Under the pieces are notes generated by a model. The model made no database searches. It was not told the DNA's origin and worked only from the letters and a program-made list of their open reading frames with translations. Shown here piece after piece: positions 34,563 through 35,288 of a stretch of DNA of 64,000 bases. The translations under genes and the position numbers were made by a program. The first letter of the stretch is position 1. Every line of letters begins with the position of its first letter. The DNA comes from Lentzea tibetensis (GTDB lineage Bacteria; Actinomycetota; Actinomycetes; Mycobacteriales; Pseudonocardiaceae). The stretch lies in contig NZ_VOBR01000008.1 in NCBI RefSeq assembly GCF_007845675.1, positions 1 to 64,000 of the forward strand, in the 5' to 3' direction.

Positions 34563-34896
34563 CGTGCTCGCGGCACCGGCGGCGGGAACAGCCGTTGGTG
34601 CGGTCGACGAACGCCGCGGCACAGACCTCGCAGCGCTTGACCCGCCGCCACCCGTCGGTGACGACCAGCGCGACGAGCCCGGCCGCCGCGGTGTCCACCA
34701 CGTCGTCGAGCTCCGCACGCCACCGACCGTCCACTTCGGACAGCCGGAGCCCGCGGAGCGCCGACTCGAGCTCGCGCGCCGCCAGCCGCTCGTCCGGCAG
34801 CGCGGTGACGACGGCCGCGAAGACCCCCTGTGCCAGCAGGGTCTCCGCGGTCCTCAGCGCCGGGTCGAGCAGCCGGAACGGCGGCACGGCCGTCAT
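34543..34896 (-). CDS. CGNR zinc-finger protein
   Basis: 117-residue protein. The C-terminal third holds the zinc knuckle RCEVCAAAFVDRTNGCSRRRC, four cysteines in the CGNR pattern, with a following histidine. The N-terminal part resembles the ABATE stress-related domain that accompanies CGNR in actinobacteria. The start ATG 34896 overlaps the stop of the L11-like gene as ATGA, so the two are translationally coupled. CGNR proteins are presumed DNA- or RNA-binding regulators. Its coupling to a ribosomal-protein paralogue makes an RNA or ribosome role worth considering; that is inference. Confidence 0.82.
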   Translation of the reverse strand: MTAVPPFRLLDPALRTAETLLAQGVFAAVVTALPDERLAARELESALRGLRLSEVDGRWRAELDDVVDTAAAGLVALVVTDGWRRVKRCEVCAAAFVDRTNGCSRRRCREHVRNGSA

Positions 34897-35288
34897 TGCT
34901 CCTCGATGGTGACTCCCATGGACCGCGCCGTGCCCGCGATGACGCGCATCGCGGCCTCGACGTCGGTCGTGTTGAGGTCGGGGAGCTTGCGCTCGGCGAT
35001 GACCCGCAGCTGAGCGCGCGTGAGCACGCGCCGCCCGTTCATCGCCTTCTTGATGAGCGAGCTGGTCGGCGGGGTCTTGAGCCGCAACGCGAACGTCTTG
35101 TCCTCGAAGACCGAGATGACCACCGGGACGGTCTCGCCGCGCTGGCCACCCGTCGCCTCGTCGTAGGCGCGCTTGATCCCGACCAGGTTCGTGCCCGTGT
35201 GCCCCAGCATCTTGCCGAGGTCCATCATCGAGGCGTTGCCCGCCTCGAGCTGCATCGTGATCTCGTGGATCGTCTTCTTCGCGGCCAT
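34893..35288 (-). CDS. Ribosomal protein L11 paralogue
   Basis: 131 residues against 141-144 for housekeeping L11. The C-terminal RNA-binding domain is well kept (FALRLKTPPTSSLIKKAMNG; VRVIAERKLPDLN-like; AAMRVIAGTARSMGV). The N-terminal domain is altered: the conserved proline-rich segment of L11 ([10 protein letters not shown]) is replaced by ASMMDLGKMLG at residues 19-29 with a one-residue deletion, so all four prolines are gone. Those prolines contact thiostrepton-type antibiotics in normal L11. A palindrome lies just upstream (35305-35319). The normal rplK should be beside rplA elsewhere; this is a stand-alone copy. Confidence 0.9.
   Translation of the reverse strand: MAAKKTIHEITMQLEAGNASMMDLGKMLGHTGTNLVGIKRAYDEATGGQRGETVPVVISVFEDKTFALRLKTPPTSSLIKKAMNGRRVLTRAQLRVIAERKLPDLNTTDVEAAMRVIAGTARSMGVTIEEQ

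What the first reader, a model, noticed from the sequence alone, without database searches (positions are those of the whole stretch)
34893..35288. Ribosomal protein L11 paralogue without the antibiotic-contact prolines
Seen: a 131-residue L11 homologue with an intact C-terminal rRNA-binding domain. Its N-terminal proline-rich segment ([10 protein letters not shown] in ordinary L11) is replaced by ASMMDLGKMLG, so none of the four prolines remains. Known: proline changes in this segment give thiostrepton/micrococcin resistance and alter the GTPase-associated centre. Inference: a stress-specific or resistance ribosomal protein that could swap into ribosomes. It is translationally coupled to a CGNR zinc-finger gene, an unusual partner.
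Basis: partly seen in the sequence, partly recalled or inferred. Interest (0 to 1): 0.75.

Follow-up and report, generated by a model that had tools for sequence, protein, structure and literature searches.

The report
Proline-less ribosomal protein L11 variant
The window carries a second, old form of the ribosomal protein L11 that lacks the prolines touched by thiostrepton-type antibiotics; some soil bacteria have lost ordinary L11 and keep only this form, so it is very probably a working ribosome part and not a dead copy.

Summary
In detail: 34893-35288(-) encodes a 131-residue L11 homologue in which the [10 protein letters not shown] segment reads SMMDLGKMLG, and the same genome also has an ordinary, proline-bearing rplK between nusG and rplA. 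One claim is wrong: the C-terminal RNA-binding domain is not intact; this copy lacks about 11 residues there.

The variant is one clade (bootstrap 100; 100/98 with the motif columns removed). All 110 distinct sequences have a one-residue-shorter segment without PP and an invariant Lys. It occurs in 70 of 298 Pseudonocardiaceae genomes (one partial) and 34 of 150 in the family of an Actinoplanes relative. In 12 and 18 of these it is the only L11 found. In 21 of 21 variant-only genomes checked, rplK is missing between nusG and rplA. So it can replace ordinary L11; presence in ribosomes is strongly implied, not shown. A1067 of the 23S site is kept in all but one genome with a hit.

Most likely: a functional alternative uL11, a second copy here, that should weaken thiopeptide binding and may alter Rel/GTPase control. 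Resistance is inference only. The CGNR-like partner is real but found in a minority (28 of 80).

The parts
34893..35288 (-). Variant uL11 (131 aa); N-terminal cleft segment SMMDLGKMLG (no proline, one residue shorter than canonical, GK invariant in the family)
34543..34896 (-). Small ABATE/zf-CGNR-like protein (117 aa), ATG overlapping the L11 stop by 4 nt
   Evidence: relatives reach sub-threshold zf-CGNR and, in two of four, ABATE scores; the window member does not
35289..35402 (-). Intergenic region upstream of the variant L11 gene (divergent Excalibur-domain gene on the other side); promoter presumably here, not tested

Best explanation
It is an alternative large-subunit protein uL11 of single origin within Actinomycetota. 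SHOWN: the clade is monophyletic on the trees made here; its N-terminal domain, which in ordinary L11 faces the thiopeptide/factor cleft, has lost the PP pair and has an invariant G-K-x-L-G in a predicted helix; in two families it is the only L11 gene of some genomes, with rplK missing from its usual place; A1067 of the 23S site is kept. INFERRED (about 0.9): it is a working ribosomal protein in the variant-only lineages. INFERRED (about 0.7): in Lentzea and other two-copy genomes it is an accessory uL11 that can be exchanged for the canonical one on the same rRNA site. INFERRED (about 0.4): the benefit is tolerance of thiostrepton/micrococcin/nosiheptide-type antibiotics, because the proline surface on which their thiazole rings stack is gone. 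The window copy, with a shortened C-terminal loop, may bind rRNA differently from its full-length relatives.
For: Monophyly: bootstrap 100 with 67 variant and 60 other rows; 100/98 with motif columns removed, 75 rows. Diagnostic segment in 110 of 110 distinct variant sequences, against PP in 76 of 79 canonical ones. Replacement: one L11 only, of variant type, in 12 of 12 suspected Pseudonocardiaceae genomes (PF00298), five of them single-contig; in 9 of 33 genomes behind named loci; in 18 of 150 in the family of G314. No L11 between nusG and rplA in 21 of 21 variant-only genomes (21-184 nt between matches), rplK present in 3 of 3 two-copy controls (548-633 nt). Same rRNA site: A1067 in all 54 genomes with a hit of 78 and in 20 of the 21 with a hit of 29. 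L11 fold: mean pLDDT 90; best PDB matches are L11 or ribosome entries. An L11 null could not be obtained in M. smegmatis (PMC3138739, passage). Thiostrepton's thiazole rings stack on the uL11 prolines, and mutations there reduce binding and confer resistance (PMC5960728, passage).
Against: No expression, ribosome-proteome or susceptibility datum was found. In two-copy lineages the gene is easily lost or absent: 2 of 25 genomes of the window's genus have it, with an empty site in 22 of 24. The window protein and eight other distinct sequences, all from two-copy genomes, have lost part of the RNA-binding domain, which fits weaker rRNA binding or an off-ribosome role. A thiostrepton-resistance vector was used in Actinoplanes teichomyceticus (PMC3897980, passages), which suggests that this relative of variant-only species may be sensitive; its own L11 was not looked at here. 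No thiostrepton-resistance methylase in 53 variant carriers (low power, 1 of 27 canonical-only genomes had one). For 15 of the 18 variant-only genomes the single copy rests on that profile search alone, which scored a capped number of candidates.
Confidence: 0.6

Rival explanations
1. Stringent-response switch: exchange of canonical uL11 for the proline-less form makes ribosomes that activate Rel poorly (a natural, regulated relC-like state), changing ppGpp, growth and secondary metabolism; thiopeptide tolerance is a side effect.
For: The L11 N-terminus is required for RelA activation and contacts the A/R tRNA (PMC4974054, passages); relC is rplK (PMC3138739, passages), and a Streptomyces griseus rel mutant tentatively called relC fails to accumulate (p)ppGpp (PMC6627660, passages). 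The altered segment lies in that domain.
Against: Variant-only species would then be permanently relaxed unless Rel adapted; Rel was not examined here. No regulatory signal was identified upstream (only sets two genomes side by side).
Confidence: 0.25
2. Neutral or nearly neutral replacement: an old duplicate that drifted in the cleft segment, happened to take over in two lineages and is being lost in others, with no special function.
For: Patchy distribution and empty sites in the window's genus.
Against: G25, K26, L28 and G29 are invariant across 35 aligned sequences, and dN/dS is about 0.32 in the window's genus; drift would not keep one replacement motif.
Confidence: 0.15
3. Off-ribosome regulator in two-copy genomes: with a shortened RNA-binding domain and a co-translated CGNR-like zinc protein, the window copy acts on transcription or on a free RNA and not in the ribosome.
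For: The C-terminal deletion was seen only among sequences of two-copy genomes: 9 of 41 measured, against 0 of 25 variant-only and 0 of 44 of untested copy number. The CGNR-like partner is in 28 of 80 named loci; among named genomes with tested copy number, in 8 of 24 two-copy and 0 of 9 variant-only.
Against: Most two-copy sequences keep the full domain (32 of 41); the N-terminal 46 residues are identical between the two copies of the genus; the nearest relative (G193) lacks the partner.
Confidence: 0.15

Closest known systems
Bacterial uL11 (rplK; Pfam PF03946 + PF00298; NCBIfam TIGR01632)
   Same: Both Pfam domains above cut-off, 45% identity to the genome's own L11 in the alignment, PDB L11 and ribosome entries as best structural matches
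   Different: No PP pair, segment one residue shorter with an invariant Lys; outside nusG-rplK-rplA; below the TIGR01632 cut-off (106.8 of 141.85); about 11 residues missing from the C-terminal domain in the window copy
Laboratory thiostrepton-resistant or relaxed (relC) L11 mutants
   Same: Altered L11 giving thiostrepton resistance in Thermus thermophilus (as told in PMC9290621, passage) or a relaxed state (PMC3138739, passages); that the changes lie in the proline-rich segment is recalled, apart from PMC5960728
   Different: Those alter the housekeeping copy; here a natural, old, conserved replacement in a separate gene
Zinc-independent alternative ribosomal proteins of actinobacteria (PMC5912738, abstract start in the listing; which proteins they are is recalled)
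   Same: A second gene for a ribosomal protein that could give mixed ribosomes
   Different: L11 is no zinc protein (recalled); here the alternative form is the only one in some lineages
ABATE / zf-CGNR proteins (PF07336, PF11706), for the partner gene
   Same: CxxC followed by DRT and a further Cys near the C-terminus in family members; sub-threshold hits to zf-CGNR in four of four and to ABATE in two of four
   Different: Short (117-141 aa), below both cut-offs; the window member has no CGNR tetrapeptide

Membership tests
Bacterial uL11 | Both L11 domains recognised by Pfam above the gathering score | tested here: met
Bacterial uL11 | NCBIfam equivalog TIGR01632 (L11_bact) cut-off | tested here: not met
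   106.8 bits against 141.85; so filed as a divergent variant, not as the equivalog
Bacterial uL11 | Proline-rich cleft segment with PP in the N-terminal domain | tested here: not met
   0 of 110 distinct variant sequences; 76 of 79 canonical
Bacterial uL11 | Full-length rRNA-binding C-terminal domain | tested here: not met
   window copy about 11 residues short; 101 of 110 distinct variant sequences are full length
Bacterial uL11 | Can serve as the only L11 of a cell | tested here: met
   at genome level for the clade, not for the window copy: 12 of 298 and 18 of 150 genomes; rplK missing from nusG-rplA in 21 of 21 checked
Bacterial uL11 | Present in ribosomes | not testable with these tools
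   needs mass spectrometry or cryo-EM
Thiopeptide-resistance determinant | Lowers thiopeptide binding or raises MIC | not testable with these tools
   inferred from literature on proline changes
Thiopeptide-resistance determinant | Linked to a thiopeptide producer or its methylase | tested here: not met
   TSNR_N in 0 of 53 variant carriers and 1 of 27 canonical-only genomes; no biosynthetic cluster recognised among the window's gene calls, by eye only
zf-CGNR (partner gene) | PF11706 above cut-off | tested here: not met
   no hit for the window member; 13.6-22.1 bits against 24 in four relatives

The most novel reading that the evidence does not exclude
Two-copy actinomycetes such as this Lentzea build two kinds of ribosome that differ at the GTPase-associated centre, switching uL11 from a proline-bearing to a proline-less form to escape thiopeptides and uncouple Rel; in Actinoplanes relatives and several Pseudonocardiaceae genera the alternative ribosome has become the only one, the first natural wholesale replacement of this universally conserved factor-binding element that I know of.
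Probability: 0.3. Interest if true: 0.85.

Novelty: new variant of a known kind. Interest (0 to 1): 0.62.

Why it matters
uL11's proline-rich cleft is part of the binding site of an antibiotic class and of the region needed for Rel activation. A natural clade that has replaced it, and bacteria that live with only that form, would give a ready test of what the prolines are for, predict which actinomycetes might tolerate thiopeptides, and bear on the use of thiostrepton markers. Gene finders and core-gene trees that rely on the TIGR01632 cut-off may also miss this form: the window copy falls below it (full-length relatives were not scored against it).

Tried and rejected
Coevolving rRNA: in the first set, 15 of 16 variant-only genomes with a hit had U, and the four two-copy and one canonical-only genome with a hit had C, at position 1078 of the GTPase centre (E. 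coli numbering recalled). The wider set broke this: variant-only genomes with C (G1090, G1077, G1132, G1135, G1138) and canonical-only ones with U (for example G1010, G1019, G003, G005). Rejected.

Drug-exporter link: the MarR regulator and MFS transporter beside the window gene looked like a resistance island, but they stay in place where the L11 gene is absent (22 of 24 loci of the genus). Rejected as evidence.

Producer self-resistance: no thiostrepton-resistance methylase in variant carriers. Low power.

Mobile element or recent arrival: the gene sits at a locus shared across Pseudonocardiaceae genera and the window's gene calls look chromosomal (by eye). Rejected, without a search for mobile elements.

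Profile A1 separates the two forms less sharply than hoped (canonical up to 171 bits, window copy 207), so those counts rest on the gap seen, with PF00298 counts and nusG-rplA checks on subsets.

Structure prediction of the genome's own canonical L11 without an alignment failed (pLDDT 43) and is not used. A first regex for loop length gave artefacts and was replaced. Passages of PMC5526262 and PMC7460540 gave nothing on thiostrepton susceptibility of Actinoplanes.

Full report
WHAT IS THERE. The minus-strand ORF 34893-35288 encodes 131 residues with both L11 domains above Pfam cut-offs. Aligned with the genome's own L11, [20 protein letters not shown] reads AGNASMMDLGKMLGHTGTN: one residue shorter, no proline, Lys in place of the last Pro. 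About 11 residues are also missing from the C-terminal domain, so 'intact' is wrong for this copy. The genome holds two L11 genes at E <= 0.001; the other is ordinary, 144 residues, between nusG and rplA. The nearest named relative is in Lentzea sp. NBRC 105346 (88% identical); G193, of the window's own genus group, has the same L11 matches at the same places as the genome of that locus, so the window's organism belongs with Lentzea.

A SINGLE CLADE. From 240 L11 sequences in the loci then held, 184 distinct ones plus 5 PDB chains were classed by best BLAST query. All 110 distinct variants have a 5-residue segment, no PP and an invariant Lys; 63 have no proline there and 47 have one. Of 79 canonical ones, 76 have PP and three do not: L116, L194 and L196. 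In a tree of 127 rows (thinned at 94% similarity) all 67 variants form one group with bootstrap 100. With the motif columns removed, in a tree of 75 rows (variants of untested copy number left out, canonical rows cut from 34 to 25), the split keeps 100/98; the bootstrap had not settled, only 125 columns were used, many forks are unresolved and L224 is a long branch. The proline-poor L194 and L116 are its nearest neighbours there, so they may be intermediates; L116 lies between nusG and rplA, while L194 shows neither gene within its short stretch.

DISTRIBUTION. Pseudonocardiaceae: 70 of 298 genomes carry it (one, G262, partial); 12 have it as the only match and 58 have at least one further L11 match; four genomes gave no match (counted from the table; the 12 confirmed with PF00298). 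Family of the Actinoplanes relative G314: 34 of 150, of which 18 with one match and 16 with two; all 150 have some L11. Three of those 18 (G314, G318, G325) were also confirmed with PF00298. Of 33 genomes behind named loci (34 asked for, L093 not held), 24 have two L11 genes and 9 have one; the nine are Amorphoplanes auranticolor, Nucisporomicrobium flavum, Actinoplanes sp. NBRC 103695, Mangrovihabitans endophyticus, Winogradskya consettensis, Pseudosporangium ferrugineum, Jidongwangia harbinensis, Paractinoplanes atraurantiacus and Actinoplanes subtropicus. Elsewhere in these draws it is rare: the window's genome alone among 396 of the phylum, 3 of 344 of the class.

REPLACEMENT OF THE ORDINARY GENE. 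In 21 of 21 variant-only genomes checked (12 Pseudonocardiaceae, 9 Actinoplanes relatives) there is no L11 match between nusG and rplA, whose matches lie 21-184 nt apart; in 3 of 3 two-copy controls rplK is in place and the distance is 548-633 nt. Five of the 12 Pseudonocardiaceae genomes are single-contig assemblies. An L11 null could not be obtained in M. smegmatis (PMC3138739, passage); in B. subtilis L11 is dispensable with severe translation defects and slow growth (PMC7098656, passage). A lineage that drops rplK and keeps only this gene is therefore most simply using it as its L11. On the tree the variant-only sequences need two changes of state; one transfer or one old locus is not excluded.

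THE rRNA SITE. The GTPase-centre core was found in 21 of 29 and 54 of 78 genomes; the rest had no hit, either because rRNA is missing from drafts or because it departs further than the pattern allowed. A1067 (numbering recalled) is A in every genome with a hit but one, G008, so the variant faces the ordinary rRNA site.

LOCUS. In many Pseudonocardiaceae loci the gene lies in a shared chromosomal setting (a hexapeptide-repeat protein, serine hydroxymethyltransferase, an MFS transporter, inorganic pyrophosphatase; names). In the Actinoplanes relatives it lies between a TypA/BipA gene and a Clp protease gene, 23 of 80 named loci, and TypA is also near it in two of six variant-only Pseudonocardiaceae stretches. 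In the window's genus, 22 of the 24 genomes with the neighbouring DUF4442 gene have an empty site. Given the shared locus, loss is likelier than gain there (inference).

PARTNER. The 117-residue ORF 34543-34896(-) overlaps the L11 stop by 4 nt. Relatives follow the L11 gene in 28 of 80 named loci, including Amycolatopsis, Kutzneria, Actinophytocola and Dactylosporangium, and in none of the variant-only stretches looked at. Four of them score 13.6-22.1 bits for zf-CGNR (cut-off 24) and two score 16.5 and 20.2 for ABATE (cut-off 24.4). The partner is absent beside the nearest relative's gene.

FUNCTION. Thiostrepton sits between the uL11 N-terminal domain and 23S helices 43/44, its thiazoles stacking on the uL11 prolines; changes there reduce binding and give resistance (PMC5960728, passage). 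The same domain is needed for RelA activation (PMC4974054, passage). The variant should therefore bind thiopeptides poorly and may alter Rel and GTPase behaviour. Neither was measured, and the use of a thiostrepton-marker vector in Actinoplanes teichomyceticus (PMC3897980, passages) speaks against simple high resistance, although the L11 of that species was not looked at here.

LITERATURE. Ten searches of the held library showed no description of this clade or of the replacement, as judged from their listings. PMC9290621 (sections 19 and 22 and passages) lists rplK among seven 'resistance indicator' genes found by duplication, odd phylogeny or place in a cluster, and marks it in Lentzea albidocapillata, which may be this gene; the parts read do not describe the protein. 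PMC3353972 (passages) surveys ribosomal protein paralogues; 'L11' does not occur in its main text, and its supplement was not seen.

VERDICT.

Noticed in passing
L302 (genome G008), 23S GTPase-centre region: A variant-only Pseudonocardiaceae genome whose single 23S hit reads G at the position of A1067 and A at that of U1097 (numbering recalled), the only departure at A1067 among the genomes with hits; a draft contig, so error or contamination is possible.
   Followed up: partly
L116 (G002), L194 (G568), L196 (G680): L11 sequences of canonical type without the PP pair (PASVGQALG, PAKVGQTLG, PAGPVGTGLG); the first two are the nearest neighbours of the variant clade. G568 gave four L11-like matches.
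   Followed up: partly
L079-L112 (23 of 80 named loci), L188, L189: The variant L11 gene lies beside or near a gene for TypA/BipA, a translational GTPase, in Actinoplanes relatives and in two variant-only Pseudonocardiaceae stretches.
   Followed up: partly
window 35403-37604 (+): Three successive genes whose products each end in an Excalibur domain; the number of copies found at this place differs between genomes of the genus.
   Followed up: no
window 34543-34562: The CGNR-like gene and the convergent DUF4442 gene overlap by 20 nt at their 3' ends.
   Followed up: no
genomes G181, G214, G262: Pseudonocardiaceae genomes with two or three L11 matches of which the best is not, or only partly, of the variant type.
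   Followed up: no
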